A DNA stretch of 64,000 nt. It comes from Actinophytocola algeriensis. Lineage in GTDB: Bacteria > Actinomycetota > Actinomycetes > Mycobacteriales > Pseudonocardiaceae. Position 1 is the first letter of the stretch, and each line of letters starts with the position of its first letter. The notes below the pieces were generated by a model, which made no database searches, was not told where the DNA came from, and saw only the letters and a list, made by a program, of their open reading frames with translations. The position numbers and the translations under genes were made by a program. Shown here in pieces: positions 29,548 through 59,699 of this stretch. The stretch is from positions 605,326 through 669,325 of the forward strand of contig NZ_JACHJQ010000003.1 of NCBI RefSeq assembly GCF_014203735.1, read 5' to 3'.

Positions 29548-29658
29548 GGAAAGTAAGCGTACGGCGTGCACACGTCCGTAGGTAACGGACCGATCACGGC
29601 GGCAACCGGCGGTGGCCGCCCCGCGGTGTCCGGAGCAACCACGACACCTGGGGGAAGC

Positions 29659-30453
29659 ATGAGAACGCTCATCAGCGCGCTCGCCGCGACCGGTCTGCTG
29701 CTCGCGGCGGCGCCCATCGCGACGGCCGACGAGACCACGACCACCACTACGACGCCCACGACAACGACACCGACGACAACGACACCGACGACAACGACAC
29801 CGACGACAACGACACCGACGACAACGACACCGACGACAACGACACCGACGACAACGCCCACCGCCACAACCACGCCAACCACAACCACGACCACCACGTC
29901 GACGACCGAGGAAATCCTCGGCCCCAACGACCTGAGCCTCACCGGCCTGACGTTCGCCCCGGACAAGAAGACCTACCGGCCCGGCGACACCTTCACCGCC
30001 ACCATGACGGCCCGAGGCGGCGCTCTCCGCGATGGGTGGGGCATCGCCGGGACCTTCCCGGCAGGGCTCACGGTCACCGGCAGTACGGGCCTGGCCGCCG
30101 TCGAGACCGGCAAGGGCACGCTCAAGGGCTTCGGCGAGGACAAGCTCGATCCCGGCGCGACCGCCACCGTGACGGTGACGTTCCGCGCGGACGCGGAGAC
30201 CAGCGGCCCGGTCACGTTCCGGGTGTTCGGTGGTCTGTGGCCGGACGTGAACCCGGACAACGACACCGTGGCCCGCGACGTCGTGGTGGCGAAGGCAACG
30301 GCACCAGCACCGCCGAAGCCCGCCCCGCAACCGAAGCTCGCCGACACCGGTGCGTCCTCGGCGGTACCGCTGCTCGCGGGCGGCGTGCTCGTCCTCCTCG
30401 GCGGCGGGCTGCTGCTGGCCGTCCGCCGCGGGAACAGCCGCGGGAATACCTGA
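29659..30453 (+). CDS. Wall-anchored Thr-rich protein with LAxTG sorting signal
   Basis: A 264-residue exported protein. The signal peptide (1-24) ends IATADE. Residues about 25-75 are a TTTTP-repeat stalk encoded by an exact 15-base tandem repeat. The folded part (about 80-210) is a single Ig-like/DUF11-like domain (PGDTFTATMT and GATATVTVTFRADA). The end carries LADTG, a hydrophobic span and a RRGNSRG tail, the layout of a sortase substrate. LAxTG is the form known for class E sortases of high-GC actinobacteria. ATG 29659 has GGGGGAA upstream. The sortase that would use it is not certain; the class F enzyme at 49070 is the only one in the window. Confidence 0.82.
   Translation: MRTLISALAATGLLLAAAPIATADETTTTTTTPTTTTPTTTTPTTTTPTTTTPTTTTPTTTTPTTTPTATTTPTTTTTTTSTTEEILGPNDLSLTGLTFAPDKKTYRPGDTFTATMTARGGALRDGWGIAGTFPAGLTVTGSTGLAAVETGKGTLKGFGEDKLDPGATATVTVTFRADAETSGPVTFRVFGGLWPDVNPDNDTVARDVVVAKATAPAPPKPAPQPKLADTGASSAVPLLAGGVLVLLGGGLLLAVRRGNSRGNT
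29761..29850 (+). repeat. 15-base tandem repeat encoding TTTTP
   Basis: Six exact consecutive copies of ACAACGACACCGACG, with a partial degenerate seventh. They lie in frame inside the Thr-rich protein gene and lengthen its stalk by five residues per copy, so length variation between strains is expected. Confidence 0.95.
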
Positions 30454-30621: not shown

Positions 30622-32499
30622 GTGAACTGGGTGGAAGTCGCGCCGATCGTGCTCGTCACGGTCGCGTGGTTGTGGTTGCCGGGGCTGCCGGTGACGTATT
30701 CGTTGGGGTTGCGGGGAATCGCGGCGGCCGCGACCGCACCGCTGGTGAGCATCGCGGTCGTGGCGGGCACCGCGGTGGCCGCCGAACTGGCCGGAGTGGG
30801 GTGGTCGGTGCTGGTACCGCTCGCCGTCTCCGCGGTACTCGCGGCAACAGCGTTCTTCCTGCGACGCAAGGCTTTCGCGCCTGATCCGCGGCGACTGACC
30901 ATCGTCGCCGCGGTGGGGATGCTGCCCGCGGCACTGCTGGCGACGTTCAGCGTCATGCGTGCGGTCGGCCCGCCGGACAGCCTCTCGCAGGTGTTCGACA
31001 CGCCGTTCCACTACAACGCGCTCGCCTACATCCGCGACACGCACCAGGCGTCGTCGCTGACGATCGGCTCGCTGGGCAACCCGGACCTGCCGGGCGTGTT
31101 CTACCCGGCGGCCTGGCACGACTTCGGCTCGCTCGTGATGATGTCGACCGGCACGTCGATCCCCATCGCCGCCAACGTGGTGTGCGCGGTCGTCACCGTG
31201 CTGCTGTGGCCGCTGTCGTGCCTGCTGCTGGCGCGTCAGCTGTTCGGCCGCAACATCGCCGCGCTGGCGATCGCGGGCGTGCTGAGCGTCGCGTTCCCCG
31301 GGTTCCCGTGGGACCTGTTCGGGTGGGGCGTGCTGTGGCCCAACCTGTTCGGGATGGCGCTCGCACCGGCGGCGTTCGCGCTCGTGCTGACCGTCACCGG
31401 ATGGGTGAAGGACGACGCGATCGGCACCCGTCGGGCGTGGGTGCTGCTCGTCTTCGCCGTGGTGGCGGCCGGGTTCGCGCACCCGAACGTGTTGTTCTCA
31501 CTGGTCGCGCTGTCGCTGTTCCCGGTCGGCGCACGGCTGTTCCTGCGGGCCAGGCAGGGCAGGCGCGGGGTGGTCGAGTGCGTGGTGTTCGCGGTCGTGG
31601 TGATCGGCGGCTGGCTGTGGTCGGCGACCTCGCCCGTGTTCGCCAACGCCAGGAACTGGAACTGGAAGGCGATCGAGACGCCGGCGAACGCGGTCGGTGA
31701 GGTGCTGCTCAACGCGACCAACCAGCGCGAGGCGCTGTGGCTGCTGTCGGCGGTGGTGGTCGTGGGCATGTGCACGGTGCCGCGGTTCCCCGTCATGCGC
31801 TGGGTGCTGGCCGCTCACGCGGTGACCGCCCTGCTGTACGTGCTCGCCGCGGGCCTCAACCGGCCGGACACCCGCCTGTTCACCGGCTACTGGTACAACG
31901 ACTCGCACCGGCTCGCGGCCATGCTGCCGATCACCGCCGTGCCGCTCGCGATCGCCGGGATCCTCTTCCTCGCCACCAAGCTGCCGAAGGTCAGGCAGCC
32001 CGCCATCGTGCTCACCGCGCTGCTGGTCGTCGCGACCGGTGGCCTGTACCCCGCCGACCGGGAGCTCCGGATCCAGGTCACCTACCCGCGCACCGAGGAA
32101 CACAAGCTGGTCACCGACGACATGCGGGACTTCTACGCGCGGGTCGCCGACGAGATCCCCGAGGACGGCCGCGTGATCGGCAACCCGTTCGACGGCAGCG
32201 TGCTGCTGTGGGCGCTCGCGGACCGCGAGGTGCTCTTCCCGCACTTCCTCACCGCGAGCAGCTCCGGGCAGGCCTACCTCGGCAGGCACCTCGAGGACGC
32301 GGCGACCGATCCGAGGGTCTGCCGCGAGCTGGACCGCTACGACGTCGGGTACGTCCTGATCGGCAAGGACGAGGCCGACACGGTCCAGGGCCGCTACGGC
32401 GGAATCCTCGGTGTCACGGACGCCGAGGGCTTCGAGCTGGTGGACCGTGCGGGGGCCACGCGGCTGTACCGGATCACCGCCTGCGACCGGCACCCGTGA
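30622..32499 (+). CDS. DUF6541-family polytopic membrane protein (copy A)
   Basis: A 625-residue membrane protein. About twelve spans fill residues 1-470, followed by an outer domain of about 150 residues. The layout is like GT-C glycosyltransferases that take sugar from polyprenyl phosphate. Characteristic segments are DTPFHYNALAYIRDTHQASS after span 4, YPAAWHDFGSLV, FPWDLFGWGVLWPNLFGMA, and TGYWYNDSHRLAAMLPI. The outer domain has VIGNPFDGSVLLWALADREV. The family has no assigned activity. GTG 30622 begins MNWVEVAP, the same as its paralog at 35971-37974, which faces it across the operon. A flippase gene follows 36 bases later. Confidence 0.82.
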   Translation: MNWVEVAPIVLVTVAWLWLPGLPVTYSLGLRGIAAAATAPLVSIAVVAGTAVAAELAGVGWSVLVPLAVSAVLAATAFFLRRKAFAPDPRRLTIVAAVGMLPAALLATFSVMRAVGPPDSLSQVFDTPFHYNALAYIRDTHQASSLTIGSLGNPDLPGVFYPAAWHDFGSLVMMSTGTSIPIAANVVCAVVTVLLWPLSCLLLARQLFGRNIAALAIAGVLSVAFPGFPWDLFGWGVLWPNLFGMALAPAAFALVLTVTGWVKDDAIGTRRAWVLLVFAVVAAGFAHPNVLFSLVALSLFPVGARLFLRARQGRRGVVECVVFAVVVIGGWLWSATSPVFANARNWNWKAIETPANAVGEVLLNATNQREALWLLSAVVVVGMCTVPRFPVMRWVLAAHAVTALLYVLAAGLNRPDTRLFTGYWYNDSHRLAAMLPITAVPLAIAGILFLATKLPKVRQPAIVLTALLVVATGGLYPADRELRIQVTYPRTEEHKLVTDDMRDFYARVADEIPEDGRVIGNPFDGSVLLWALADREVLFPHFLTASSSGQAYLGRHLEDAATDPRVCRELDRYDVGYVLIGKDEADTVQGRYGGILGVTDAEGFELVDRAGATRLYRITACDRHP

Positions 32500-32535
32500 C
32501 CGGCCGGGGCCGGGACGTTCCGTACGGTTGTCCGC

Positions 32536-33867
32536 GTGGTCAGCCTGCGTGCACGTCTCGGCCCCGCCATCTACATGGGCGGGGGGCTGGCGCTCGTCGG
32601 CGCGGCGGGCTACGGGTTCGTGGCGCTCGCCGGGCACACGCTCGACCCGGCCCACGCGGCCGCCCTCGCCAGCCTCTACCTCATGGTCAACATCATCGGC
32701 CCCGGTGTGTTCTCCGCGCTCGAGCAGGAGACCAGCCGGTCGGTGAGCACCGAGGTCGCCGCGGGCCGCCCGACGGGGGTGGTGCTGCGGCACGCGTGGC
32801 TCCTCGCGTCCGCGCTGCTGGCCGCGGTGCTCCTGGTGCTGCTGATCGTGTCGCCGGTCCTCACCGACCGGGCGTTCGCCGGGCAGTGGGGGCTGTTCGT
32901 GGCCGTGCTGCTGAGCGTGGTCACCTCGGCCGCCGTGTACGTGGTGCGTGGCCTGCTCGGCGGCGTCCAGCGGTTCACCGGCTACTCGGCCACGCTCGCC
33001 GCCGAGGGCATCGCCAGGATCCTGCCGTGCGTCGTGATCGCGGCGCTGGGCATGCCGGACTCCACCGGCTACGCGCTGATCTTCGCCGCGGGCTCCGGGT
33101 TCGGCGCGGTCGCCGGGCTGTTCTGGCTGCGGCGCGGCGTGCGCGAGCCGGTCGAGCCTGCCGAGCCCACCGGGCCGGTGACCGCGGCGCCGCCGACCGT
33201 GAAGAACATGGCGCGGGCGCTGTCGCTGCTGGTGGGCGGCACCGTGCTGATGCTGGTCGTGTCGAACGTGGCGCCGATCGTGGTGACCGGGCGGCTGACC
33301 GACGACGCGGTCACGGCCGCCGCGTTCGCGTCGGCCTTCGTGCTCGCCCGCATCCCGCTGTTCCTGTTCGCGCCGGTCCAGGCGATGCTGCTGCCGTCGC
33401 TGACCAGGGCGGCCGCCGCGCACGACTTCGCGACGGTGCGGGCCAGGCTCCGGGTGATCATCATGGCGGTGCTCGCCATCGGGCTGCTCGGCGTGCTCGC
33501 GTCGTTCACGATCGGGCCGTGGGCCGTGCAGGTGCTGTTCGGCGCCGAGGTGCGCCTGTCGGCCGTGGTCGTCGGCCTGCTCGGGGTCAGCACGGTCGGG
33601 CTGATGACCGCGATGGTGCTGCAGCCGGGGCTCATCGCGCTGGGTGCGCACAAGTCGGTGACCATCGCGTGGCTCGCGGGCACGGTGGTGCTGGTCGCGC
33701 TGCTCGCGCTGCCCGGTGACCCCATCCGGGCCGGGGTGGCGGCGCAGCTCGCCGGTGCCGCACTCGTGGTGGTGATCATGCTCCGCGCGCTGTCGACGGC
33801 GCTGCGCGGCGGGGCCCAACCCGCGGCGGCGACAGCCGGTACCGGAGTCGCCACGACACCCGGCTAG
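32536..33867 (+). CDS. MOP-superfamily polysaccharide flippase
   Basis: A 443-residue membrane protein with about twelve spans, of the Wzx/oligosaccharide-flippase type. The start GPAIYMGGGLALVGAAGYGF is typical, as is the EQETSRSVSTEVA loop after span 2 and the repeat-like second half from TVKNMARALSLLVGGTVL. It would turn lipid-linked sugars to the outer leaflet. GTG 32536 follows the DUF6541 gene by 36 bases; the GT2 gene starts 11 bases after its stop, so the block is an operon. Substrate is inferred from neighbours. Confidence 0.87.
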   Translation: MVSLRARLGPAIYMGGGLALVGAAGYGFVALAGHTLDPAHAAALASLYLMVNIIGPGVFSALEQETSRSVSTEVAAGRPTGVVLRHAWLLASALLAAVLLVLLIVSPVLTDRAFAGQWGLFVAVLLSVVTSAAVYVVRGLLGGVQRFTGYSATLAAEGIARILPCVVIAALGMPDSTGYALIFAAGSGFGAVAGLFWLRRGVREPVEPAEPTGPVTAAPPTVKNMARALSLLVGGTVLMLVVSNVAPIVVTGRLTDDAVTAAAFASAFVLARIPLFLFAPVQAMLLPSLTRAAAAHDFATVRARLRVIIMAVLAIGLLGVLASFTIGPWAVQVLFGAEVRLSAVVVGLLGVSTVGLMTAMVLQPGLIALGAHKSVTIAWLAGTVVLVALLALPGDPIRAGVAAQLAGAALVVVIMLRALSTALRGGAQPAAATAGTGVATTPG

Positions 33868-33878
33868 TCTTGTCACCC

Positions 33879-34658
33879 GTGTCAAGCAAGGTGCCTGCGG
33901 CCCGCGCGATCATCGTTGTTCCCGCCTGGAACGAGCAGCTGACGGTGGGTGAGACGGTGCGGGAGATCCGCGCCGCGACGCCCGACCTCCCGGTGCTGGT
34001 CGTGAGCGACGGGTCGACCGACCGGACCGCCGACGTGGCCCGCGACGCGGGCGCCCTCGTGCTGGAACTTCCCTTCAACCTCGGTGTCGGCGGGGCGATG
34101 CGGGCCGGGTTCCGCTACGCCGTCCGCCACGGCTACGACGCCGCCGTCCAGGTGGACGCGGACGGGCAGCACGACCCGAAGGAAGTACCGGTGCTGCTGG
34201 AGAAGCTCGCCGAGTACGACATCGTGATCGGTGCCCGGTTCTCCGACGGCGACGACACCTACAAGGTCAAGGGCCCCCGCAAGTGGGCCATGGTCGTGCT
34301 GTCGAAGGTGCTGTCCAAGCTCGCGAAGACCAAGCTCACGGACGCCACGTCCGGGTTCAAGGCGACCGGTGGCCGTGCGCTGCCGGTGTTCGCCGAGCAC
34401 TACCCGGTGGAGTACCTGGGTGACACCGTCGAATCGCTGGTGATCGCGCTGCGTGCCGGCTGCAAGGTCACGCAGGTGTCCGCGCACATGCGCCCCCGGC
34501 GCGGCGGCACCCCCAGCCACCGGCCGATCAAGTCCATGATCTACCTCTTCCGCGCGGGCTTCGCCCTGCTGCTCGCCCTCATCCGCCGGTACGACACGGC
34601 GGCCGAGGTCGACCAGAAGCAGGCGCGTCCCGCGGTGAAGGAAGGCGTCACGCGATGA
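33879..34658 (+). CDS. Polyprenyl-phosphate glycosyltransferase, DPM1-like GT2
   Basis: A cytosolic or membrane-associated GT2 enzyme of about 259 residues, of the group that loads a sugar onto polyprenyl phosphate. Seen are VVPAWNEQLTVGE, the LVVSDGSTDRT loop, FNLGVGGAMRAGFRYA, and the metal site VQVDADGQHD near residue 91. No C-terminal membrane spans are present; instead a DUF2304 membrane gene overlaps its stop (ATGA), a pairing often seen for this GT2 class. The start may be TTG 33870 or GTG 33879; the latter is chosen. It probably makes the sugar donor used by the DUF6541 proteins (inference). Confidence 0.88.
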   Translation: MSSKVPAARAIIVVPAWNEQLTVGETVREIRAATPDLPVLVVSDGSTDRTADVARDAGALVLELPFNLGVGGAMRAGFRYAVRHGYDAAVQVDADGQHDPKEVPVLLEKLAEYDIVIGARFSDGDDTYKVKGPRKWAMVVLSKVLSKLAKTKLTDATSGFKATGGRALPVFAEHYPVEYLGDTVESLVIALRAGCKVTQVSAHMRPRRGGTPSHRPIKSMIYLFRAGFALLLALIRRYDTAAEVDQKQARPAVKEGVTR

Positions 34659-35023
34659 GCAACACCTACCTGGTCGCCCTGGTCGGCAGCATCCTGGTGC
34701 TCGCGGGCATCGTGGAGCTGCTCCGCCGCCGTCAGCTCGGCGAGAAGTACGCGGTGCTGTGGCTCGTCGTCGGCATCCTGCTGCTGATCTTCACGGTGTT
34801 CCCCGGCCTGCTGACCGGGATCGCGAGCGGTCTCGGCGTCGCGGTGCCGACCAACCTCATGTTCTTCGTGGGGATCCTGTTCCTCGTCGGCGTGGTGCTG
34901 CACCTGTCGTGGGAGGTGTCCAGGCTCGAGAACGAGACCCGCAAGCTCGCCGAGGACCAGGCCATCCTGCGGCTCGAGGTCGAGCAGCTGCAGCGCGACA
35001 AGCAGGAGAACGTGACCGACTGA
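34655..35023 (+). CDS. DUF2304 membrane protein
   Basis: A 122-residue protein with three membrane spans (about 5-22, 34-52 and 67-86) and a charged helical tail (about 88-120) likely to form a coiled coil (SRLENETRKLAEDQ). The segment RRRQLGEKYAVLWLVVG after span 1 is the DUF2304 mark. Its start overlaps the stop of the GT2 gene (ATGA), and its stop overlaps the next GT2 start (TGATG). It may anchor the soluble GT2 enzyme at the membrane, but this has not been shown for the family to my knowledge. Confidence 0.88.
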   Translation: MSNTYLVALVGSILVLAGIVELLRRRQLGEKYAVLWLVVGILLLIFTVFPGLLTGIASGLGVAVPTNLMFFVGILFLVGVVLHLSWEVSRLENETRKLAEDQAILRLEVEQLQRDKQENVTD

Positions 35024-35907
35024 TGGCAGACGTCGACATCATGATGCCGTTCTACGGCGACGTCCCGATGATGCAGGCGGCCGTCCGCAGCGTCATGGCG
35101 CAGGACGACCCGCGCTGGCGGCTCACGGTCGTCGACGACGACAGCAACCCCGCCGTGCCGGAGTGGTTCGCGACCATCGACGACGAGCGGGTGCGGTACG
35201 TCAAGAACCCGGAGAACCTGGGCCTGACCGGCAACTTCAACCGCTGCCTCGAGCTGGTCGAGCACGAGTTGTGGACCCTCATCGGCTGCGACGACCTGAT
35301 GCTGCCGAACTACGTCGGCACCGTGCAGGGCGTGTACGCCGACCACCCCGACGTGGGCATCATCCAGCCCGGCGTGCGGGTGATCGATGGCGACGGGAAC
35401 GAGTCGAAGACCCTGGTCGACGAGGCCAAGCGCCGGATCTACGCGCCGAAGTTCGACCGCCGCGTCGCGCTGACCGGCGAGGCGCTGGCGGTCAGCCTGC
35501 TGCGTGGGGACTGGCTGTACTTCCCGTCGATCTGCTGGCGCACCGAGGTGGTCAAGGGGCTGCGGTTCCGGCCGGAGCTGAAGGTCATCCAGGACCTGGC
35601 ACTGCTGATCGAGGTGGTCCAGCGCGGCGCGAAGCTCGTCGCCGACCGCACCGTGGCCTTCGAGTACCGCCGCCACGACGCGTCGGAGTCGTCGGCGACG
35701 GCGTTCGACGGCTCCCGCTTCACCGAGGCGGGCGAGTTCTTCAACGACGTGGCCGACAGGATGGCCGCCCACGGCTGGCACCGGGCCGCGCGCGTGGCGC
35801 GGCTGCACCTGTCGTCGCGGATCTTCGCGCTCACCAAGCTGCCGCAGGCGGTCAAGGCACGCAACGGCGTGCAGCCACTGGTCAGGCACGCTTTCGGCCG
35901 AGCCTGA
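35023..35907 (+). CDS. GT2-family glycosyltransferase
   Basis: A 294-residue GT-A enzyme. The nucleotide-sugar fold starts DVDIMMPFYGDVPMMQAAV. The metal-site region is TLIGCDDLMLPNYV with Asp-Asp, and the acceptor-side motif is VIQDLALLIEV, near residues 186-196. It has no membrane span and likely acts at the inner membrane face, adding a sugar to a lipid-linked acceptor that the flippase exports. Start ATG overlaps the DUF2304 stop (TGATG), so it ends a tightly coupled operon. A hairpin terminator follows directly. Confidence 0.88.
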   Translation: MADVDIMMPFYGDVPMMQAAVRSVMAQDDPRWRLTVVDDDSNPAVPEWFATIDDERVRYVKNPENLGLTGNFNRCLELVEHELWTLIGCDDLMLPNYVGTVQGVYADHPDVGIIQPGVRVIDGDGNESKTLVDEAKRRIYAPKFDRRVALTGEALAVSLLRGDWLYFPSICWRTEVVKGLRFRPELKVIQDLALLIEVVQRGAKLVADRTVAFEYRRHDASESSATAFDGSRFTEAGEFFNDVADRMAAHGWHRAARVARLHLSSRIFALTKLPQAVKARNGVQPLVRHAFGRA

Positions 35908-35912
35908 CACCG

Positions 35913-35972
35913 ATGCCCTGAAAGACGCTTTCGGGGGCGTTGAATGCCCCGAAAGCGTCCGTCACGGCATTC
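35913..35972. terminator. Bidirectional hairpin of the CGAAAGCGTC repeat family
   Basis: Perfect 13-base arms GACGCTTTCGGGG and CCCCGAAAGCGTC around a 10-base loop, nested in outer arms ATGCC and GGCAT. It lies between the convergent GT2 and DUF6541 genes and shares its words with the hairpin at 6734-6760. Confidence 0.75.
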
Positions 35973-37974
35973 AGCCGTCCGAGTCGCTGCTCGGGATGTC
36001 GCAGGCGGTGATGCGGTACAGCTTGCTGTCGCCGTCCGTGTCGACCAGTTCGAAGCCCGGCGCCGAGCCCGGGTCGTCCAGGCCGCTGTAGTACTCCCAC
36101 TTGATGTCGGACGTGCGGAACTCGCCGCCGCCGACCAGCAGGAACTCGATGCCGAGGTCCTCGACCGCGTCGCAGACCTCCGGGTCGCTGGCCACCTCGT
36201 CCAGGTGGCCGGCGACGAGGTCCTGCTCGGGGCTCTGCGTGCTGCGGAAGTGCGGGAACAGCACCTGCCGGTCCGCGAGGGTCCACAGCATGGCGCTTCC
36301 GTTGAACGGGTTGCCCGCGACCAGGGCGTCGTCCGGGATCTCGTCCTTGATCCGCTGGAAGAACTCCTGCGTCTCCGAGTTCACGAGCTGCGCCGGGTAG
36401 GGCACGGCGTACCCGGCGGTGACGCGGACCTCGCGGTCCTTCGGGTACAGGCCACCGGTCACCACGACGAGCGCGGCGGCGAGCGTGACGATCAGCGTGG
36501 TCGACGACGTCGTCGCGATCCTGGCGCGCCAGCCGGTGGGGGCTTCCGCGCCCTCGGCGCTGCGGGCCAGCAGCTTCGCGGCGATGAACAGGATGCCGCC
36601 GACCGCGAGCGGGACGGCCGTGATCGGCAGCATGGCCGCGAGGCGGTGCGAGTCGTTGTACCAGTAGCCGGTGAACTTCTTGGTGTCCGGCCGGTTGATG
36701 GCGGCGGTCAGCACGTACAGGAACGTGGTGGCGACGTGCCCGGCCACGATCAGCCGCAGGATCGGCCACTCGCGGCGCGCGGCGAACACGCCGACGATCA
36801 CCACGATCGACAGGATCCACAGCGCCTCGTGCCGGTGCGTGGCGTTCAGCAGCACGTCGCCGACCGCGTTCGCGGGGGTCTCGAACGGCGGCCAGTACTG
36901 GTCACGCGTGTTGGCGAACGCGGGCGTCGTGGCCGTGTACCACCACACCAGGCCGGCGAACAGGACCGCGGCGACCACCTCGACGATCCCGCGGACCGTC
37001 TTGCCCGCCTTGTGCAGCTCCCACGCGCGGGCACCGAGCCGGGCGCCGATCGGGAACAGTGCCAGCACGCCGACGGAGAACAGCACGTTCGGGTGCGTGA
37101 GCCCCGCCGCGACGACCGCGACCACCGCGGCGAGCCAGCCGCGGCCCACACCGATCGCGTCGTCGGCGACCCAGCGGGTCACCGTGAACACGATCGCGAG
37201 CGCCGCGGGTGCGAACGCCATGCCGAGCAGGTTCGGCCACAGCACGCCGAATCCGAGCAGGTCCCACGGGAACGCGGCGAAGCCGAGGCTCAGCGTGCCG
37301 GTGATGGCGAGCGCGCCGACGTGGCGGCCGAACAGCTGGCGGGCCAGCAGCAGGCAGGACAGCGGCCACACGATGATCGTGGCGACCACGGTCACGAGGT
37401 TCGCGGCCACCGGGATCGAGCTGCCGGTCGACAGCATCACGAGCGAGCCGAGGTCGTGCCACGCCGCCGGGTAGAACACGCCGGGGACCTCGGGGTTGCC
37501 GAGCGTCGAGAGCGTCAGCGACGACGCCTGGTGCGAGTCCTGGATGTAGGCGAGCGCGTTGTAGTGGAACAGCGCGTCGTAGGTCTGGTTGAGCACGTCC
37601 GGCGCGTGGATCGCCATGACGATCGTGATCATCCCGAGCACCATGCCGGGCAGCAGGCCGACGAATCCGGCGACGGACACCGCCCTCGGGTCCGGCTCGG
37701 CGGCGAAGATCCGGCGCCGTCGCAGCAGGAATCCGACCACGCCGGCGACCGCCACGACCACGACGCACACGACGAGCACAGCGAGCGCACTCCAGTCGAT
37801 GCCCGCCATCTCGAGGACGACGGCCGTCGACGCGATGATCGCGAGGCTCGTCATCGGTGCGAGCCCCCATGCGGCGATGCCGCGGAGGCCGACCAGGTAG
37901 CTGATCGCCACACCGGGTACGAGCAGCCATGCCGCGGTGACCAGCAGGGCGGGCACGGCTTCGAACCAGTTCAT
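35971..37974 (-). CDS. DUF6541-family polytopic membrane protein (copy B)
   Basis: A 667-residue paralog of copy A with the same layout: about twelve spans, then an outer domain. Both start MNW.E..P, and nearly every landmark is shared: ALFHYNALAYIQDSHQASS, YPAAWHDLGSLV, FPWDLLGFGVLWPNLLGMA, TGYWYNDSHRLAAMLPI and VAGNPFNGSAMLWTLADRQV. The longer length comes from a loop near residues 460-480. It faces the glycan operon and is divergent from the LGFP-protein gene. The pair likely uses the same lipid-linked donor on different acceptors; this is inferred. Confidence 0.82.
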   Translation of the reverse strand: MNWFEAVPALLVTAAWLLVPGVAISYLVGLRGIAAWGLAPMTSLAIIASTAVVLEMAGIDWSALAVLVVCVVVVAVAGVVGFLLRRRRIFAAEPDPRAVSVAGFVGLLPGMVLGMITIVMAIHAPDVLNQTYDALFHYNALAYIQDSHQASSLTLSTLGNPEVPGVFYPAAWHDLGSLVMLSTGSSIPVAANLVTVVATIIVWPLSCLLLARQLFGRHVGALAITGTLSLGFAAFPWDLLGFGVLWPNLLGMAFAPAALAIVFTVTRWVADDAIGVGRGWLAAVVAVVAAGLTHPNVLFSVGVLALFPIGARLGARAWELHKAGKTVRGIVEVVAAVLFAGLVWWYTATTPAFANTRDQYWPPFETPANAVGDVLLNATHRHEALWILSIVVIVGVFAARREWPILRLIVAGHVATTFLYVLTAAINRPDTKKFTGYWYNDSHRLAAMLPITAVPLAVGGILFIAAKLLARSAEGAEAPTGWRARIATTSSTTLIVTLAAALVVVTGGLYPKDREVRVTAGYAVPYPAQLVNSETQEFFQRIKDEIPDDALVAGNPFNGSAMLWTLADRQVLFPHFRSTQSPEQDLVAGHLDEVASDPEVCDAVEDLGIEFLLVGGGEFRTSDIKWEYYSGLDDPGSAPGFELVDTDGDSKLYRITACDIPSSDSDG

Positions 37975-38232
37975 CGCGGGCGCAACCTCGTCTACTCGCG
38001 GGGATCCCAGCGTTGGGGCGGGCTGATTCTAGGAAGCCGGACGAATGTGGCGTCGGTCACCCATTGCGTCGCTCGGAGGGCACGCTCCCACGTGGTCACT
38101 CTCCGCACGAAACGTCCCGCTAATTCCGCATAACGAACCTGTATGGATGAAACGTCATCACCCGTATGGGCGATAGGCCGCACGAATAGCATCCGTCGGT
38201 CGCACAGGCCGTCGAACACCCGGGGGACGGCC

Positions 38233-41067
38233 ATGGCCAGAAGAATCCGACCTGCGTTACGTCGTGCCGTGTTGCTGCCGGCGCTCGCCGTGGTCGCCGC
38301 GACGCTCACCGTCCTGCCTGCCGCCGCGCCCGCCGCGGCCGCGCCCAGGCTCGAGGACGGGTTCGTCCTCCGCGACATCGAGACCGGCCTCGCGGGCATC
38401 TCCGGCGGCAAACTCGGCGACGGCCTCACCGACTTCGCCTACCTGCCCGACGAGTCCATCCTGGTCGCCGGCAAGTACGGCAAGGTCATGTGGCTGCCGC
38501 GCACCGGGGCGCCGAAGCAGATCGCGGACATCCCGACCAACGGGTCGGGCGACCTCGGCCTCAACGGGCTCGCGGTGGCACCCGACTACGCGACCAGCAA
38601 GGCGATCTACACCGCCCGCGCGGTCAACGCGACCGGCACGGGCACCGGCGCGAACGGCGTGCTGCGGGTCAGCCGCTGGACCGTCACCACCGACGCGGCG
38701 GGCAACCCGGCAGGCCTGACGAACGAGCAGACGGTCATCCAGACCTTCGCCGACTTCTACATCCACGGTCTCTCCGGCATCGTCGCCGCACCCGACGGCA
38801 CCGTGTGGGCGTCCATCGGCGACAACGCGAACTACGTCGGCGTCCCGCGTGAGGCGCTGCGCGCGATCGACCCGAACGACCTGCACGGCAAGCTGATCCA
38901 CGTCAACCCGGACGGCACGGGCGTGCCGACCAACCCGTACTACGACCCGGCGAACCCGCGTTCGCCGCGCAGCCAGATCTTCGCGAGCGGCTTCCGCAGC
39001 CCGTTCCGGATCAGCCTCGAACCGGGCACCGGCCGCCCGCTCCTCGGTGACGTCGGCAACGGCGCCATCGAGGAGATCAACATCGTCGCGGCGGGCAACA
39101 ACTACGGCTGGCCGTGCTGGGAAGGCAACGTGAAGACCGCGTGGAGCAACACGTACGCGGAGTGCGCGAACGTCTCGTCGGCGCAGCCGGTCTACTCCTA
39201 CCCGCACGTCGGTGGCAGCAGCGTCACCGGCGGCGTGGTCTACACGGGACACACCTACCCGGACGCCTACCACGGCAAGTACTTCTTCGGTGACTACGCC
39301 GACCGCGTCATGTGGACGATGAAGTGGGACGAGCGCGGCGAGCTCACCACGGCGCCCGAGACAGGCGGCTTCGGCGGCGAGATCGGCGCGCCGGTCAAGT
39401 TCGGCACCGTGCCCACCGGCGGCGACATCATCTACGCCGACATCGCGTCCGGGAAGCTGCGCCGGATCGTCTACGCCCCTGGCAACGTGCCGCCGGACCC
39501 GGTGATCAGGTCCACGGTGGACCCGGCGACCCGCACTGTCGCGTTCGACGCCCGCGAGTCCACCGACCCCAACGGCGACCCGCTGACGTACACGTGGGAC
39601 TTCGGCGACGGCCAGACCGGCACCGGTGAGACGGCGAGCCACACCTACGCGGCGGGCCAGGAGAGCTTCGAGGTCACGCTCACCGCACGCGACCCGGGCG
39701 GCGCGACCGCGACGAAGAGCGCCACCGTCCACCCGAGCAACCACCCGCCGGTCCTGTCGCTGCAGGCACCGGACCCGGACGTGACGTTCGAGGTCGGCGA
39801 CCAGATCGCCGCCGACGCGACCGCGACCGACGCGGAGGACGGTGAGCTCGCCGTCGGCTGGGAGACCCAGATCGTCCACTGCGCCGCGCCCGCCGACTGC
39901 CACCTGCACCCGGGCGCGCGGCAGGACGGTCCGCGGTTCCGGCTCACGTTCGACGGGCACCCCGGCGACAGCAGGCTCGAGGTCACCGCGGTCGCGGTCG
40001 ACTCGAAGGGCGCGGCCACGACGAGCACGTTCACGGTCCGCCCGAAGCAGCGCCGCGTCACGATCAACAGCACGGCCGCTGCCGACTTCACGATCGGTCA
40101 GGAGAACCTGTCGTCCGGGCTGTTCACGGTCGGCACGCCGCTCACGATCATCGCGCCGGAGCGGTCGCTCGACGGCATCGCCACCTTCGGCCAGTGGGCG
40201 GAGGGCAGCACGAACCGCGTCCGCGAGGTCGTCCTGCCCGACGCCGACCAGGTGTACGAGGTCCTCTACGCCACCCCGATCGACCAGCGGTACGACTCGG
40301 ACGCCGCGCTGCGCACCGCGCTCGGCACGCCGACCGACGTCGAGCAGGGTGACACGAAGGTCCGCTGGCGCAACTACCAGCGCGGCCGCCTGTACTGGTC
40401 GCCGACCACGGGCGTGCACGTGATGGCCGGCGCCGTGCTGGCGAAGTACCTGGCGATGGGCGGGCACGTCTCGCTCGGCCTGCCCACCACCGACGAGCTG
40501 GCGGGCGCGGGCGGCGGCCGCTACCAGCTGCTGGACCGCAACCAGGGCCTCTACTGGCTCCCGGCCACTGGCGCGCACCTGGTGGTCGGCGCGATCCACA
40601 CCCGCTACCGCGCGATCGGCGCGGAGGGCTCGGCGCTCGGCTACCCGACCACCGACGAGGGCGGCGCCCCGGCAGGCCGGTTCAACCACTTCCAGCGCGG
40701 CTCCGTCTACTGGACGCCCAAGTACGGCGCGTGGGAGCTGTTCGGCGCGATCCTCGGCCGCTGGAACGCGCTCGGCGGCGCGACCGGCCTCGGCTTCCCG
40801 ACCGGCGGCGAGACCAGCACCCAGGGCAACACCGGCCGGTACCAGCACTTCGAGCGCGGCACGGTCCTGTGGTCGGGCGCCACCGGCGCGTGGGAGGTCC
40901 TCGGGGCCATCCGCACCCGCTACTTCGCGCTCGGCTGGGAGCGGTCCTACCTCGGCTTCCCGAAGAGCGGCGAGTACGGCGTGACCGGCGGCCGCCGCTC
41001 GGACTTCCAGGGCGGCTACATCTTCTACGAATCGGCTACGGGCCGGGTCACCGACCGGCCGTACTGA
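38233..41067 (+). CDS. Secreted PQQ-type sugar dehydrogenase with PKD and LGFP repeats
   Basis: A 944-residue exported protein. The signal peptide (1-37) ends AAAA. Residues about 40-415 are a glucose/sorbosone dehydrogenase six-blade propeller: GDGLTDFAYLPDES, LNGLAVAPDY, ASGFRSPFRISLEP (the PQQ-site Arg region), NYGWPCWEG and YFFGDYADRVM. A PKD-like domain (about 425-505, YTWDFGDGQTG) and a second Ig-like part follow. The C-terminus (about 690-944) has five LGFP repeats (LGLPTTDE, LGYPTTDE, LGFPTGGE, LGFPKSGE), which bind mycolyl/arabinogalactan walls in corynebacteria. ATG 38233 precedes the leader. It likely sits in the wall and oxidises or binds a sugar. Confidence 0.87.
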   Translation: MARRIRPALRRAVLLPALAVVAATLTVLPAAAPAAAAPRLEDGFVLRDIETGLAGISGGKLGDGLTDFAYLPDESILVAGKYGKVMWLPRTGAPKQIADIPTNGSGDLGLNGLAVAPDYATSKAIYTARAVNATGTGTGANGVLRVSRWTVTTDAAGNPAGLTNEQTVIQTFADFYIHGLSGIVAAPDGTVWASIGDNANYVGVPREALRAIDPNDLHGKLIHVNPDGTGVPTNPYYDPANPRSPRSQIFASGFRSPFRISLEPGTGRPLLGDVGNGAIEEINIVAAGNNYGWPCWEGNVKTAWSNTYAECANVSSAQPVYSYPHVGGSSVTGGVVYTGHTYPDAYHGKYFFGDYADRVMWTMKWDERGELTTAPETGGFGGEIGAPVKFGTVPTGGDIIYADIASGKLRRIVYAPGNVPPDPVIRSTVDPATRTVAFDARESTDPNGDPLTYTWDFGDGQTGTGETASHTYAAGQESFEVTLTARDPGGATATKSATVHPSNHPPVLSLQAPDPDVTFEVGDQIAADATATDAEDGELAVGWETQIVHCAAPADCHLHPGARQDGPRFRLTFDGHPGDSRLEVTAVAVDSKGAATTSTFTVRPKQRRVTINSTAAADFTIGQENLSSGLFTVGTPLTIIAPERSLDGIATFGQWAEGSTNRVREVVLPDADQVYEVLYATPIDQRYDSDAALRTALGTPTDVEQGDTKVRWRNYQRGRLYWSPTTGVHVMAGAVLAKYLAMGGHVSLGLPTTDELAGAGGGRYQLLDRNQGLYWLPATGAHLVVGAIHTRYRAIGAEGSALGYPTTDEGGAPAGRFNHFQRGSVYWTPKYGAWELFGAILGRWNALGGATGLGFPTGGETSTQGNTGRYQHFERGTVLWSGATGAWEVLGAIRTRYFALGWERSYLGFPKSGEYGVTGGRRSDFQGGYIFYESATGRVTDRPY

Positions 41068-41081
41068 AGGGGGCACACACG

Positions 41082-43767: not shown

Positions 43768-45687
43768 ATGCTCGGCAGCACCCCGACCACGAGCGAGGCG
43801 TCGGCTCCGGACGAGCGGCTGGTGGAGCACGCGCCCAGCGGGCGTCTGGTCGCCCAGCGCGGGCTGTTCCGCGGTCCCGACCCGGTGTGCCCTGACGACC
43901 TGTACGCACAGATCACCATCGGCAACGCGGCGCGCGAGCGGCAGCGCCTGGTGGTGCACAGCGGCTCCGAGGTGTCCATGGACACCTACTTCGGCCGCTT
44001 CCCGGCGAGCTACTGGCAGCGCTGGACCGTCGTGTCCGAGGTGCACGCGGAGGTGACGATCTCCGGCTCCGGCCGGGTGGCGCTCGTCGCGTCCGACCCC
44101 AAGGGTGAGACCCGCACGGTCGCGGCCGAGGAGGTCACCGACCAGCGCGGCGGCCAGGTCACCCTGCGTGCCGCGCTCAACCAGTACCTCGACGGCGGCT
44201 TCCTCTGGCTGGAGTTCGCCGCGCCGGAGTCCGACCTGGTCGTCGAACGCCTCCGCTGGACCGTCGAGGCGCCGGAGCTGCTGCGCCCGACCGCCGTCGT
44301 CATCTGCACGTTCAACCGGGCCGACGACTGCACGAAGACGCTGCAGGCACTCGCCGCCGACGACGAGGCGCTCGACGTGCTCGACGCCGTGTACGTGGTG
44401 GACCAGGGCACCGACACGGTCGAGTCGCGGGACGCGTTCCCGCAGGTCGAGAAGGACCTCGGCGGCAGGCTGCGGTACCTCCGCCAGCCCAACCTCGGCG
44501 GCGCGGGCGGCTTCGGCCGCGGCATGTACGAGGTCACCGAGCGCGGCTCGGAGCACGCGAACGTGCTGCTGATGGACGACGACGTGCTGTGCGAGCCGGA
44601 GATCGCGGTGCGGCTGACCGCGTTCGCCAACCGCACGGCGGAGCCGACCATCGTCGGCGGCCAGATGCTGCGGCTGCTGCACCCGACGATCCTGCTGGCC
44701 GGCGCCGAGTACGCGGACTTCGCGCAGCTCGTGCCGGGCAAGGTCGTGAAGGGCGCCCTCGACGACGTCGACCTCACCGAGGAGGCGGAGGACGACTACG
44801 GCGTGCCGACCGGCAAGCCCAACCGGGGCGACCGCCGCGTCGACGCCGACTACAACGCGTGGTGGTCCTGCCTGATCCCGGCCGAGGTGATCGCGAAGAT
44901 CGGGCTGCCGCTGCCGCTGTTCTTCCAGTGGGACGACGTCGAGTACGGCTACCGCGCCCGCCACGCCGGGTTCGCGACCGTCACCCTGCCCGGCGCCGGG
45001 CTGTGGCACGCGGACTTCGACTGGAAGGACGCGGACAAGTGGAACGAGTACTTCGCGGTCCGCAACTCGATGATCGTGGCCTCGCTGCACGCCGAGATCG
45101 ACCCGAAGCAGACCGCGCGGGTGTTCGTGTCCCGTGTCAGCCGCTACCTGATGTCGATGCAGTACGGCCTCGCGGCCACGCTGATCAAGGCGGTCGAGGA
45201 CTTCCTGAAGGGGCCTGACTTCCTGCACGACGGCGGGGCGGCCGCCGCCAAGGAGATCCACGTCGTCCGCGCCGACTACCCGGACACGATCATGTACCCG
45301 GCCAGCGACGTGCCCGGCTACAAGCCCGGCGACGTGCCGATGGTCCAGGCCGGTCCCGCGCCGAGCAAGGCGCGGCTGGTGCTGCTGAAGCGGCTCATCC
45401 ACTTCGCGATGGGCAAGACGGTGCACGAGATCGGCGCGGTCACCCAGAAGGACGCCACCTGGTGGCACCTGTCGCAGTTCAACACGGTCGTCGTCACCGA
45501 CGGCTCGCAGGGTGGTGTGCGCATCCGCCGCCGCGACAAGGAGGTGACGGTCCGGCTCGCCAAGGAGTGCGGCAGGCTCACCCGCCGCCTGATCAACGAG
45601 ATGCCCCGCCTGCGCGAGGAGTACCGCGCCGCCGCCGGGGACCTGACCAGCCGCGAGAACTGGACCCGCCTCTACAACCGCGACTGA
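43768..45687 (+). CDS. glfT2: Galactofuranosyltransferase GlfT2
   Basis: Polymerises the galactan chain of arabinogalactan from UDP-galactofuranose on a decaprenyl-linked acceptor, at the inner membrane face. The 639 residues equal the mycobacterial enzyme (637). An N-terminal beta-sandwich (about 1-160) precedes the GT-A domain, with VVICTFNRADDC, PNLGGAGGFGRG, the metal motif MDDDV (Asp270-272), the catalytic FQWDDVEYG (Trp388, Asp389-390) and LWHADF (His414). A helical C-terminal domain gives the tetramer interface. It opens an operon-like run with a methyltransferase and a second GlfT2-like gene. In M. tuberculosis glfT2 sits beside glf; here glf is 9 kb away. Confidence 0.93.
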   Translation: MLGSTPTTSEASAPDERLVEHAPSGRLVAQRGLFRGPDPVCPDDLYAQITIGNAARERQRLVVHSGSEVSMDTYFGRFPASYWQRWTVVSEVHAEVTISGSGRVALVASDPKGETRTVAAEEVTDQRGGQVTLRAALNQYLDGGFLWLEFAAPESDLVVERLRWTVEAPELLRPTAVVICTFNRADDCTKTLQALAADDEALDVLDAVYVVDQGTDTVESRDAFPQVEKDLGGRLRYLRQPNLGGAGGFGRGMYEVTERGSEHANVLLMDDDVLCEPEIAVRLTAFANRTAEPTIVGGQMLRLLHPTILLAGAEYADFAQLVPGKVVKGALDDVDLTEEAEDDYGVPTGKPNRGDRRVDADYNAWWSCLIPAEVIAKIGLPLPLFFQWDDVEYGYRARHAGFATVTLPGAGLWHADFDWKDADKWNEYFAVRNSMIVASLHAEIDPKQTARVFVSRVSRYLMSMQYGLAATLIKAVEDFLKGPDFLHDGGAAAAKEIHVVRADYPDTIMYPASDVPGYKPGDVPMVQAGPAPSKARLVLLKRLIHFAMGKTVHEIGAVTQKDATWWHLSQFNTVVVTDGSQGGVRIRRRDKEVTVRLAKECGRLTRRLINEMPRLREEYRAAAGDLTSRENWTRLYNRD

Positions 45688-46375: not shown

Positions 46376-46404
46376 GCCACCCCCACACCGGAGGAGCAGA
46401 AACC

Positions 46405-55588: not shown

Positions 55589-55589
<1 letters not shown>

Positions 55590-56158
55590 TGACCACCACC
55601 GCTCCGGCTCGCCTGCGTGTAGTCGAACCCGGCACCCCGCCTCCCGAGCCGGAGCGGTCGGCCGAGATCAGGGCCCTCGCCGCGGTCCAGCGCACGATCG
55701 GGAAGCCCCCGGTCGTGCGGGCCGCGCGCGGGCTGTCGCTGTTCGGTGAGCACTCGGCCGGCTGGTTCGCGCTCGGCCTGGTCGGCGCGGCGGTCGACCG
55801 CGACCGCCGCAAGGACTGGCTCGTGAGCGCCGCCGGTGTCGTCGCCGCGCACGCCGCGTCGATCGCGGTGAAGCGGGTCGTGCGCAGGCAGCGGCCGATC
55901 GACGAGTCGGTCGAGGTGCTGGTCAAGACGCCGTCGTCGCTGTCGTTCCCGTCGTCGCACGCGACGTCCACGACGGCCGCCGCGGTCGTGTACTCCGGCC
56001 TGACCGGCCGCAACCTGGTGCCCGCGCTGGTGCCGCCGATGCTGGTGTCGCGGCTGGTGCTTGGCGTGCACTACCCGAGCGACGTGCTCGCGGGCGCGAC
56101 GCTGGGCGCGGTCGTCGGCGGACTGGTCCGCCGACTCGTCCGGAAGCGCGTCTCATGA
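55589..56158 (+). CDS. PAP2-family decaprenylphosphoryl-5-phosphoribose phosphatase
   Basis: A 189-residue membrane phosphatase. The three PAP2 motifs are present: KRVVRRQRP (about 95-103), SFPSSHATS (about 114-122) and SRLVLGVHYPSDVLAG (about 154-169). It matches the place and type of Rv3807c, proposed to remove the 5-phosphate from decaprenylphosphoryl-phosphoribose before epimerisation by DprE1/DprE2. It lies between glf and the phosphoribosyltransferase gene. Fine substrate choice is inferred from the operon. Confidence 0.9.
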
Positions 56159-56231
56159 GCGGAGCTTGCGGAGCGAATCGGCAGACGCAGGGCGACCGCG
56201 AGCGGCTCCACGGAGCCTGCGAGGGGGAGTC

Positions 56232-57167
56232 GTGAGTAGCACGGCGGAGAGCGGCACTTCGGTGTCCTCCGCCGACGCCCCGCGCGGTGGGCTCGTGCGG
56301 GGCGTGATCCGCACGGCCCGGCCGCGCCAGTGGGTGAAGAACGTGCTGGTGCTGGCGGCGCCGTTCGCCGCGTTCGCCGCCAACCCGGTGTTCCGGTCGG
56401 ACGTGGTCGTCGACGCCGCCATCGCGTTCGTCGCGTTCTGCCTGGTCGCGTCCGCGGTGTACCTGATCAACGACGCGATCGACGTCGAGGCCGACCGGGC
56501 GCACCCGACCAAGCGCAACCGGCCCATCGCGGCCGGGATCGTGCCGGTGCGGCTGGCGTACGGGCTGTCGGTGTTCCTGTTCCTGGCGTCGTTCGCGGTG
56601 TCGCTGGTGTCGAGCTGGCGGCTCTTGGTCGTCGTCGGCGTGTACGCGGCCGTGCAGGTCGGCTACTGCCTGGGGCTCAAGCACCAGCCGGTGATCGACC
56701 TGTGCATCGTCGCGTCGGGCTTCCTGCTGCGCGCGATCGCAGGCGGTGCCGCCGCCGGGCTGCCGCTGTCGCAGTGGTTCCTGCTGGTCACCGCGTTCGG
56801 TTCGCTGTTCATGGTGGCGGGCAAGCGGTACGCGGAGATCGTGTTGTACGAGCGGACCGGCGCCAAGATCCGCGCGTCCCTGTCGAAGTACTCCGCGAGC
56901 TACCTGCGGTTCGTGTGGGCCACCTCCGCGGCGATCATGATCATGACCTACGCGCTGTGGGCGTTCGAGATCCGTCAGCGCACCGGCACCAACTCGGTGT
57001 GGGCGGTCATCTCGATCGTCCCGATGGTGGTCGCGGTGCTGCGGTACGCGGTCGACGTGGACGGCGGCAACGCGGGGGAGCCGGAGGAGATCGCGCTGCG
57101 CGACCGTGTGCTGCAGGTCCTCGGTGCGTCGTGGGTCGTCTGCGTGGCCCTGTCCGCGTTCCTCTAG
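56232..57167 (+). CDS. ubiA: Decaprenyl-phosphate phosphoribosyltransferase (UbiA fold)
   Basis: Joins 5-phosphoribosyl pyrophosphate to decaprenyl phosphate, the first step to decaprenyl-phosphoryl-arabinose. The 311 residues have nine membrane spans. The first Asp-rich motif is NDAIDVEAD (Asn80 to Asp88), preceded by RPRQWVKNVLV, and the second loop is VIDLCIVASGFLLRAIAGG. The YAEIVLYE segment is also typical of Rv3806c proteins. GTG 56232 follows GGGGGAG and is favoured over upstream codons, which run through the previous gene's end. It closes the glf operon. Confidence 0.94.
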   Translation: MSSTAESGTSVSSADAPRGGLVRGVIRTARPRQWVKNVLVLAAPFAAFAANPVFRSDVVVDAAIAFVAFCLVASAVYLINDAIDVEADRAHPTKRNRPIAAGIVPVRLAYGLSVFLFLASFAVSLVSSWRLLVVVGVYAAVQVGYCLGLKHQPVIDLCIVASGFLLRAIAGGAAAGLPLSQWFLLVTAFGSLFMVAGKRYAEIVLYERTGAKIRASLSKYSASYLRFVWATSAAIMIMTYALWAFEIRQRTGTNSVWAVISIVPMVVAVLRYAVDVDGGNAGEPEEIALRDRVLQVLGASWVVCVALSAFL

Positions 57168-57172
57168 CCCCG

Positions 57173-59298: not shown

Positions 59299-59331
59299 GG
59301 CAGAAGTGTACACAACCATGTACCAGAGTGG

Positions 59332-59670: not shown

Positions 59671-59699
59671 GGCAGGTAGACCGCGTCAGCGGCCGGGAC

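What the first reader, a model, noticed from the sequence alone, without database searches (positions are those of the whole stretch)
30622..37974. Two DUF6541 membrane proteins face each other around a flippase-GT2-DUF2304-GT2 operon
Seen: paralogs of 625 and 667 residues share about a dozen landmark segments and both start MNW.E..P, but lie on opposite strands bracketing an operon of a Wzx-like flippase, a DPM1-like GT2, a DUF2304 protein and another GT2. Known: DPM1-like GT2 enzymes load sugar onto polyprenyl phosphate, and GT-C enzymes use that donor outside. Inference: DUF6541 proteins are GT-C-like transferases and the block is an undescribed lipid-linked glycan assembly and decoration system, with DUF2304 as membrane anchor for the soluble GT2. 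This is the best candidate for a new system in the window.
Basis: partly seen in the sequence, partly recalled or inferred. Interest (0 to 1): 0.75.

Follow-up and report, generated by a model that had tools for sequence, protein, structure and literature searches.

The report
Cell-wall galactan sugar-decoration gene cluster
These genes look like a machine that loads a sugar onto a lipid, flips it across the membrane and attaches it to the galactan of the cell wall; it is a soil-bacterium variant of the pathway that puts galactosamine on the wall polysaccharide of mycobacteria and their relatives.

Summary
In detail: two DUF6541 membrane proteins (54% identical) lie around flippase / GT2 / DUF2304 / GT2. 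The mechanism guessed is largely right, the novelty is not. The block is a variant of known lipid-linked sugar decoration of (arabino)galactan. In a mycobacterial-type genome the published Rv3779 primer falls on the start of a DUF6541 gene; Rv3779 is the reported galactosaminyltransferase. That genome also has an Rv3630-type flippase, PpgS and DUF2304 in the window's order. Streptococcal GacI-J-K-L has the same architecture. Differences: the window GT2 lies outside the PpgS clade and fails its model (94 of 370 bits), so its sugar is unknown; 3 of 5 genus genomes show the operon beside DUF6541; the pair stems from a duplication within the genus. All 5 genus genomes have GlfT2 but no detectable Emb or AftA, although the window encodes UbiA- and DprE1/DprE2-like proteins. 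The usual arabinan acceptor may be absent, and DUF6541 could even be the missing user of lipid-linked arabinose.

The parts
30622..32499 (+). DUF6541 protein a, GT-C-like transferase; first gene of the operon
   Evidence: PF20176 577 bits; profile kinship of the family with AftA
32536..33867 (+). Rv3630-type flippase candidate
   Evidence: no Pfam hit; 2 of 10 relatives hit Polysacc_synt_3; hhalign 98.7% to mycobacterial and 99.1% to coryneform-type proteins
33870..34658 (+). GT2, likely polyprenyl-phosphate sugar synthase, outside the PpgS clade
   Evidence: PF00535; NCBIfam PpgS 93.7 bits, below cut-off 370; tree; PDB relatives ArnC and DPMS
34655..35023 (+). DUF2304, three hydrophobic segments, likely helper of the GT2
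   Evidence: PF10066 91.9 bits; hydropathy; only DUF2304 found in the genome
35023..35907 (+). second GT2, perhaps adds a second sugar to the lipid-linked unit
   Evidence: PF00535 62 bits; no hydrophobic segment above threshold
35913..35970 (.). 24-nt inverted repeat between the convergent genes, possible shared terminator
   Evidence: 88% complementary arms; not listed by the terminator scan
35971..37974 (-). DUF6541 protein b, GT-C-like transferase
   Evidence: PF20176 602 bits; G21, D133, H137, Y168, P169, R444, G559 identical in 111 of 111 sequences
43768..45687 (+). second GlfT2-like protein (context)
   Evidence: GlfT2_domain3 106 bits, Glft2_N 85 bits
46000..48306 (+). GlfT2, galactan polymerase (context; start codon uncertain)
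   Evidence: GlfT2_domain3 250 bits, Glft2_N 174 bits
54375..55589 (+). Glf, UDP-galactopyranose mutase (context)
   Evidence: TIGR00031 353 bits, over cut-off 304
56061..57167 (+). UbiA-family prenyltransferase; role in lipid-linked arabinose synthesis inferred from the neighbourhood (context; start uncertain)
   Evidence: PF01040 75 bits
62306..63061 (-). short-chain dehydrogenase, DprE2-like (context; name recalled)
   Evidence: adh_short; 57-58% to genes in mycobacterial-type loci L035 and L037
63058..64000 (-). DprE1-like oxidoreductase, running past the window end (context; name recalled)
   Evidence: ALO 36 bits; 451 aa open across the edge; 53-59% to genes in L034, L035, L037

Best explanation
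The block is an envelope-polysaccharide decoration system. The GT2 at 33870, helped by DUF2304, loads a sugar onto polyprenyl phosphate in the cytoplasm; the GT2 at 35023 may add a second sugar; the Rv3630-type membrane protein flips the lipid-linked unit; the two DUF6541 proteins, members of the Rv3779 family and distant kin of AftA, transfer it outside the membrane to the galactan made by GlfT1, GlfT2 and Glf. Shown here: gene content, order, conservation and kinship of the parts. From print: activities of Rv3631/Rv3632 and Rv3779. Inferred: the flipping, the acceptor, the number of sugars and any split of work between the two DUF6541 copies. The sugar is unknown and need not be GalNAc.
For: Published Rv3779 primer core found in 1 of 198 genus genomes, in frame inside a DUF6541 gene of 299 bits. 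Same genome: flippase, PpgS (408 bits, cut-off 370), DUF2304 in that order, with one published Rv3630 peptide identical over 20 of 20 residues. Window flippase to mycobacterial ones 98.7%, E 1.5e-16; reversed 0.1%. DUF6541 to AftA 97.3%, E 2.4e-11; reversed 0.2-0.3%. Galactan genes Glf, GlfT2 in the window and GlfT1 and ABC genes beside it. 7 of 14 named loci carry all four operon genes beside DUF6541; in hand-picked stretches of 28 family genomes the synthase is found in 20, the flippase in 17, Glf or GlfT2 in 23. Reported functions: PMC9671496, PMC3485146, PMC3229680, PMC8327497 (passages).
Against: The first GT2 fails the PpgS model (93.7 of 370 bits) and lies outside its clade. No Emb or AftA_N in the genome, so the arabinan that Rv3779 is reported to modify is not evident. 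Operon genes near DUF6541 are missing in G613 and G697 of the genus, in 8 of 15 mycobacterial-type genomes and in 7 of 8 genomes of other classes at the thresholds used. PF20176 did not ring in the C. glutamicum control although cgp_0658 is called an Rv3779 orthologue. The flippase is not among the five most enriched genes named for C. glutamicum. No fold could be predicted. Known GT-C pairs used as positive controls were not detected by the same method.
Confidence: 0.68

Rival explanations
1. One or both DUF6541 proteins are Emb-independent arabinofuranosyltransferases that use the lipid-linked arabinose made by UbiA, DprE1 and DprE2 to put arabinose on galactan in a genus without Emb or AftA. 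The flippase-GT2-DUF2304 operon then serves only one of them, or another acceptor.
For: UbiA-, DprE1- and DprE2-like genes in the window, yet 0 of 5 genus genomes match Emb or AftA_N while 5 of 5 match Glft2_N and DUF6541. DUF6541 is profile kin of the arabinosyltransferase AftA.
Against: The studied family member Rv3779 is reported to use polyprenyl-P-GalNAc, and DUF6541 genes travel with lipid-sugar synthases. 37 of 65 DUF6541-positive family genomes also have Emb. 7 Emb- and AftA-negative genomes with Glft2_N have no DUF6541 over cut-off. AftB, AftC and AftD were not searched.
Confidence: 0.17
2. The system decorates another acceptor, such as surface proteins, a lipid or a separate exopolysaccharide, and lies beside the galactan genes by inheritance of a cluster only.
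For: Secreted-type LGFP and RCC1-repeat proteins lie next to it. DUF6541 also occurs in an archaeon, Methanosarcina acetivorans, and in genomes of other classes without Glf or GlfT2 above threshold nearby.
Against: Glf or GlfT2-type genes lie within the fetched stretches of 23 of 28 family genomes, and Rv3779 is reported to act on arabinogalactan.
Confidence: 0.14
3. DUF6541 is a polymerase or ligase of flipped oligosaccharides (Wzy- or WaaL-like) rather than a sugar transferase.
For: Two GT2 enzymes and a Wzx-like flippase also fit a Wzx/Wzy scheme. A scan of 17 DUF6541 members at E up to 10 gave no GT-C family of Pfam.
Against: Alignment with AftA, also for 21 Mycobacteriaceae-type members alone (94.0%, E 1.4e-7). 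Rv3779 is reported as a transferase. None of the operon's own genes matched a priming sugar-phosphate transferase.
Confidence: 0.08

Closest known systems
Mycobacterial arabinogalactan galactosamine pathway: Rv3631 (PpgS), Rv3632, Rv3779, with Rv3630 upstream
   Same: Order flippase-GT2-DUF2304; DUF6541 transferase; galactan gene neighbourhood
   Different: GT2 fails the PpgS model; an extra GT2 and a second DUF6541; everything in one locus; no Emb or AftA_N in the genome. Rv3779-like protein is 23-24% identical to the window copies
Corynebacterium glutamicum arabinogalactan modification genes ppgS, cgp_0391, cgp_0393, cgp_0396, cgp_0658 (PMC9671496, passages)
   Same: Lipid-sugar synthase, Rv3632 homologue, extra GT2, Rv3779 orthologue; coryneform-type genome G424 has flippase-GT2-PpgS-DUF2304 in a row
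   Different: Window's second GT2 resembles the coryneform GT2 only weakly (21-48 bits with its profile); cgp_0658 lies apart from ppgS by its gene number
Streptococcal GacI-GacJ-GacK-GacL and related systems (PMC8327497, passages)
   Same: Lipid-sugar synthase, DUF2304 helper, Wzx-like flippase, polytopic transferase
   Different: Acts on a rhamnan; its transferase was not compared with DUF6541 here
AftA arabinofuranosyltransferase (AftA_N, PF12250)
   Same: Profile alignment over 260 columns including the Asp and Tyr-Pro motifs
   Different: About 15% identity in that alignment; DUF6541 members gave no AftA_N match in Pfam scans

Membership tests
AG galactosamine decoration pathway (Rv3630-Rv3632 + Rv3779) | Transferase of the Rv3779 family | tested here: met
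   Rv3779-primer gene and both window proteins are PF20176; separate clades within the family
AG galactosamine decoration pathway (Rv3630-Rv3632 + Rv3779) | Synthase is PpgS | tested here: not met
   93.7 bits against cut-off 370; mycobacterial 408, coryneform-type 415 and L036 405 bits pass
AG galactosamine decoration pathway (Rv3630-Rv3632 + Rv3779) | DUF2304 partner gene next to the synthase | tested here: met
AG galactosamine decoration pathway (Rv3630-Rv3632 + Rv3779) | Acceptor is arabinan of arabinogalactan | tested here: inconclusive
   No Emb or AftA_N match in the genome, but UbiA-, DprE1-, DprE2-like genes present; other arabinosyltransferases not searched
AG galactosamine decoration pathway (Rv3630-Rv3632 + Rv3779) | Sugar is galactosamine | not testable with these tools
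   needs wall analysis or enzyme assay
GacI-J-K-L type decoration system | Synthase, DUF2304, flippase and polytopic transferase encoded together | tested here: met
   description from passages
GacI-J-K-L type decoration system | Backbone exported by an ABC transporter | tested here: met
   ABC_tran and ABC2_membrane genes beside GlfT1 just past the window; transport itself not testable
GT-C glycosyltransferases | Sequence kinship with a known GT-C family | tested here: met
   AftA 97.3%, E 2.4e-11, reversed 0.2-0.3%; 45.9%, E 2.1e-4 with 17 sequences only; 75.8% in a first run. No signal to PMT_2 or Emb, but these controls did not find each other either
GT-C glycosyltransferases | Invariant acidic residue in a loop between hydrophobic segments | tested here: met
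   D133 in 111 of 111, in a stretch without Lys/Arg between segments 104-116 and 191-209; outside location is inferred
GT-C glycosyltransferases | GT-C fold | not testable with these tools
   structure prediction switched off; no solved relative by sequence
Wzx/MATE-type flippases | Family or fold match | tested here: inconclusive
   window protein no hit, 2 of 10 relatives hit Polysacc_synt_3; its homologue Rv3630 is reported to match MATE structures (PMC8562490, passages)

The most novel reading that the evidence does not exclude
In Actinophytocola the wall galactan carries no Emb/AftA-made arabinan. Instead two DUF6541 GT-C enzymes, distant kin of AftA, finish it: one attaches a flipped one- or two-sugar unit made by the GT2-DUF2304-GT2 operon, the other uses the lipid-linked arabinose made by UbiA, DprE1 and DprE2. 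That would be an Emb-free wall polysaccharide finished by a family that, as far as I saw, has not been described as arabinosyltransferases.
Probability: 0.15. Interest if true: 0.72.

Novelty: new variant of a known kind. Interest (0 to 1): 0.5.

Why it matters
It gives the unnamed Pfam family DUF6541 a likely function (the Rv3779 family) and a likely superfamily (AftA-like GT-C). It points to a conserved Rv3630-type candidate for the flippase that a 2022 paper calls unidentified. It shows the decoration machinery in a genus that seems to lack the main arabinan-making enzymes, so its acceptor, and the fate of lipid-linked arabinose there, become concrete testable questions.

Tried and rejected
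Calling the block undescribed: rejected after the link to Rv3779 and Rv3630-Rv3632. Filing the first GT2 as PpgS: rejected on score and tree. Treating the facing pair as the functional unit: rejected, relatives carry one to three DUF6541 copies in varied order, and copies a and b split within the genus. GT-C by Pfam scan of 17 members at E up to 10: no GT-C family. GT-C against PMT_2 and Emb profiles: no signal, but the positive-control pairs failed too, so uninformative. Solved structures by sequence: DUF6541 only two antibody chains at E about 1, flippase none. DUF6541 as a general replacement for Emb: only a weak negative association (Emb in 37 of 65 DUF6541-positive and 44 of 55 negative family genomes; Fisher p 0.011, uncorrected for kinship), no association with Glft2_N (59 of 65 and 50 of 55). 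A broken DprE1 at the window end: rejected, the frame is open across the edge. Papers on wall sugars of the genus: nothing usable. Published Rv3630 peptides against the window flippase itself: no better than shuffled; the link runs through the mycobacterial protein.
Full report
WHAT IS THERE. Two DUF6541 proteins flank a short operon as described. The left copy is 36 bases upstream of the flippase-like ORF on the same strand, so it reads as the first gene of the operon; the right copy is convergent, with a 24-nt inverted repeat in the gap that the terminator scan did not list. The genome search found no other DUF6541 and no other DUF2304 gene. The genus includes Actinophytocola: three same-genus genomes (G648, G676, G697) have contigs of exactly the lengths of named records of A. 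xinjiangensis, A. xanthii and A. oryzae.

WHERE IT SITS. The window also holds GlfT2 (46000), a second GlfT2-like protein (43768), Glf (54375), a PAP2 protein (55589), a UbiA-family protein (56061) and DprE2- and DprE1-like genes (62306; 63058 onward). The names DprE1 and DprE2 are recalled; the calls show an ALO domain, a short-chain dehydrogenase and 53-59% identity to genes in mycobacterial-type loci that also carry DUF6541. GlfT1 (508 bits, cut-off 330), an ABC ATPase and an ABC-2 membrane protein follow just past the window. This is an arabinogalactan-type cluster.

THE LINK TO KNOWN GENES. The core of the published Rv3779 forward primer (PMC3485146, passages) was searched in 198 genomes of a mycobacterial-type genus; 1 matched, G724. 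The match lies in frame in a DUF6541 gene: read from the primer's GTG the protein is 664 aa and scores 299 bits; the longest open reading starts 22 codons upstream. The gene's end fits the published reverse primer in 14 of 15 bases (compared by eye). Genes that look by eye like the ABC, GT2 and membrane genes of the GlfT1 region follow; no family scan was run on those. G724 also has, in order, a flippase-like gene, PpgS (408 bits, cut-off 370), DUF2304 (99 bits) and, on the other strand, an epimerase. One published Rv3630 peptide (PMC2891697, passages) is identical there over 20 of 20 residues, the other matches in part. The window flippase aligns with four mycobacterial-type ones at 98.7% (E 1.5e-16) and five coryneform-type ones at 99.1% (E 4.2e-19); reversed controls 0.1 and 0.2%. 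These nine had been picked by a profile of the window family (75-130 bits). So each part of the window block has a counterpart in the pathway described in PMC9671496 (passages), PMC3485146 and PMC3229680 (passages). The original 2010 paper is not held.

WHAT IS IN PRINT. The PMC9671496 passages say that the flippase of this pathway is unidentified and propose that the extra GT2, cgp_0396, adds a second sugar. PMC8562490 (passages) calls Rv3630 a putative drug efflux protein from MATE-like structure matches and Rv3632 a putative flippase. A search for Rv3630 listed 15 papers; I read passages of three and saw no link of Rv3630 to this flipping step, so absence is not proven. DUF6541 is in 0 papers of the library, DUF2304 in 1.

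SAME ARCHITECTURE ELSEWHERE. Passages of PMC8327497 describe GacI (lipid-sugar synthase), GacJ (DUF2304, enhances GacI), GacK (Wzx-like) and GacL (polytopic transferase), and decorations of one or more sugars. The window block is this architecture with DUF6541 in the GacL role and an extra GT2.

NEIGHBOURHOOD. Of 14 named loci, 7 (L092, L093, L094, L097, L098, L099, L104) carry flippase, synthase GT2, DUF2304 and second GT2 beside a DUF6541. From the 65 of 120 family genomes with DUF6541 over cut-off I fetched 40 stretches of 28 genomes, picked by hand over the score range: synthase (200 bits or more) in 20 of 28, flippase 17, second GT2 15, window-type DUF2304 9, Glf 18, GlfT2-type 16, either galactan gene 23, nothing 1. 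Same class, 5 genomes: synthase 4, window-type DUF2304 2, Glf 3, GlfT2-type 3. Mycobacterial-type family, 15 genomes (20 stretches): synthase 6, second GT2 6, GlfT2-type 4, nothing 8; a further 4 genomes of that family: synthase 1, nothing 3. Other classes, 8 genomes: synthase 1, nothing 7. The thresholds are set on the window family and miss Rv3630-type flippases and Rv3632-type DUF2304. In the genus, the window genome, G648 and G676 have the operon beside DUF6541 (3 of 5); G613 and G697 show no flippase or synthase above threshold in their stretches.

TREES. With 111 DUF6541 sequences the Rv3779-type clade and the window clade are separate (FastTree, midpoint root, support values not read). 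Copies a and b split within Actinophytocola; A. xanthii has both types side by side. With 57 synthases the window GT2 falls in a clade next to, not inside, the one that holds PpgS, so its sugar should not be assumed to be GalNAc.

GT-C TEST. A first run with two AftA sequences gave 75.8% over 45 columns. A profile of 111 DUF6541 sequences against six AftA sequences gave 97.3%, E 2.4e-11, 260 columns; reversed controls 0.2-0.3%. 21 Mycobacteriaceae-type sequences alone gave 94.0%, E 1.4e-7. With 17 window-like sequences the tool gave 45.9%, E 2.1e-4, with the same motifs aligned; flippase against AftA 0.1%. DUF6541 against PMT_2 and Emb profiles gave nothing, but PMT_2, Emb and AftA profiles did not find each other either (0.1-2%), so the method is insensitive to known GT-C kinship and those negatives say little. 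G21, D133, H137, Y168, P169, R444 and G559 of protein b are identical in 111 of 111. This supports AftA-like GT-C kinship; it is not a fold determination.

THE ACCEPTOR PROBLEM. In 120 genomes of the family, 81 match Emb (PF04602), 42 AftA_N (PF12250), 109 Glft2_N and 65 DUF6541 over cut-off. The 5 genus genomes are Emb- and AftA_N-negative but positive for Glft2_N and DUF6541; 22 of 120 genomes have this pattern, and 7 more are Emb- and AftA_N-negative with Glft2_N but without DUF6541. C. glutamicum rings as control for Emb and AftA_N. So the arabinan that Rv3779 is reported to decorate is probably not made by the usual enzymes here, although genes for its lipid donor seem to be in the window. 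Either the decoration goes straight onto galactan, or DUF6541 adds arabinose, or enzymes not searched (AftB, AftC, AftD) do.

AGAINST AND UNRESOLVED. PF20176 did not ring in the C. glutamicum control, which is among the 14 since other families ring there, although PMC9671496 calls cgp_0658 an Rv3779 orthologue and genomes of genus g239, taken as coryneform from size and gene order, match at about 197-243 bits. I could not settle this. The flippase is not among the five genes named as most enriched in the C. glutamicum screen. DUF6541 and Glft2_N presence are not associated across the 120 genomes, as Glft2_N is nearly universal there.

VERDICT. A real, conserved envelope-glycan decoration cluster, a new variant of a known kind. 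The most interesting part lies beyond the finding: the missing Emb and AftA beside an intact-looking arabinose-donor pathway.

Noticed in passing
43768-45687 and 46000-48306: Two GlfT2-type proteins side by side (GlfT2 and a 639-aa paralogue); similar pairs lie near DUF6541 in several relatives, such as L093, L095, L100, L102 and L106. What the second one does is unknown.
   Followed up: partly
55589-64000: PAP2, UbiA-family, DprE2-like and DprE1-like genes in the window of a genome without detectable Emb or AftA_N.
   Followed up: partly
26168-28291: Acyltransferase-3/SGNH protein resembling SucT (253 bits, far below the cut-off 1275), perhaps another modifier of wall polysaccharide.
   Followed up: no
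38143-43547: A GSDH-PKD-LGFP-repeat protein followed by an RCC1-repeat protein; L092 shows the same LGFP protein and three RCC1-type stretches beside the cluster.
   Followed up: no
29566-30453 and 49070-49651: A Thr/Pro-repeat protein ending in an LADTG-type motif and hydrophobic tail (no Pfam hit) and a sortase-domain protein (91 bits) about 19 kb away.
   Followed up: no
57106-58610: AbiEi-like and AbiEii-like pair (28 and 92 bits, both over cut-off) directly after the UbiA-family gene.
   Followed up: no
L104 (CAJCJE010000262.1): Contig titled Candidatus Melainabacteria carries the operon with 51-76% identity to the window proteins; it is probably an actinobacterial contig in the wrong bin.
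   Followed up: no
L112, L121, L129, L141: In four family genomes an AftA_N gene lies in the fetched 20-kb stretch around a DUF6541 gene.
   Followed up: partly
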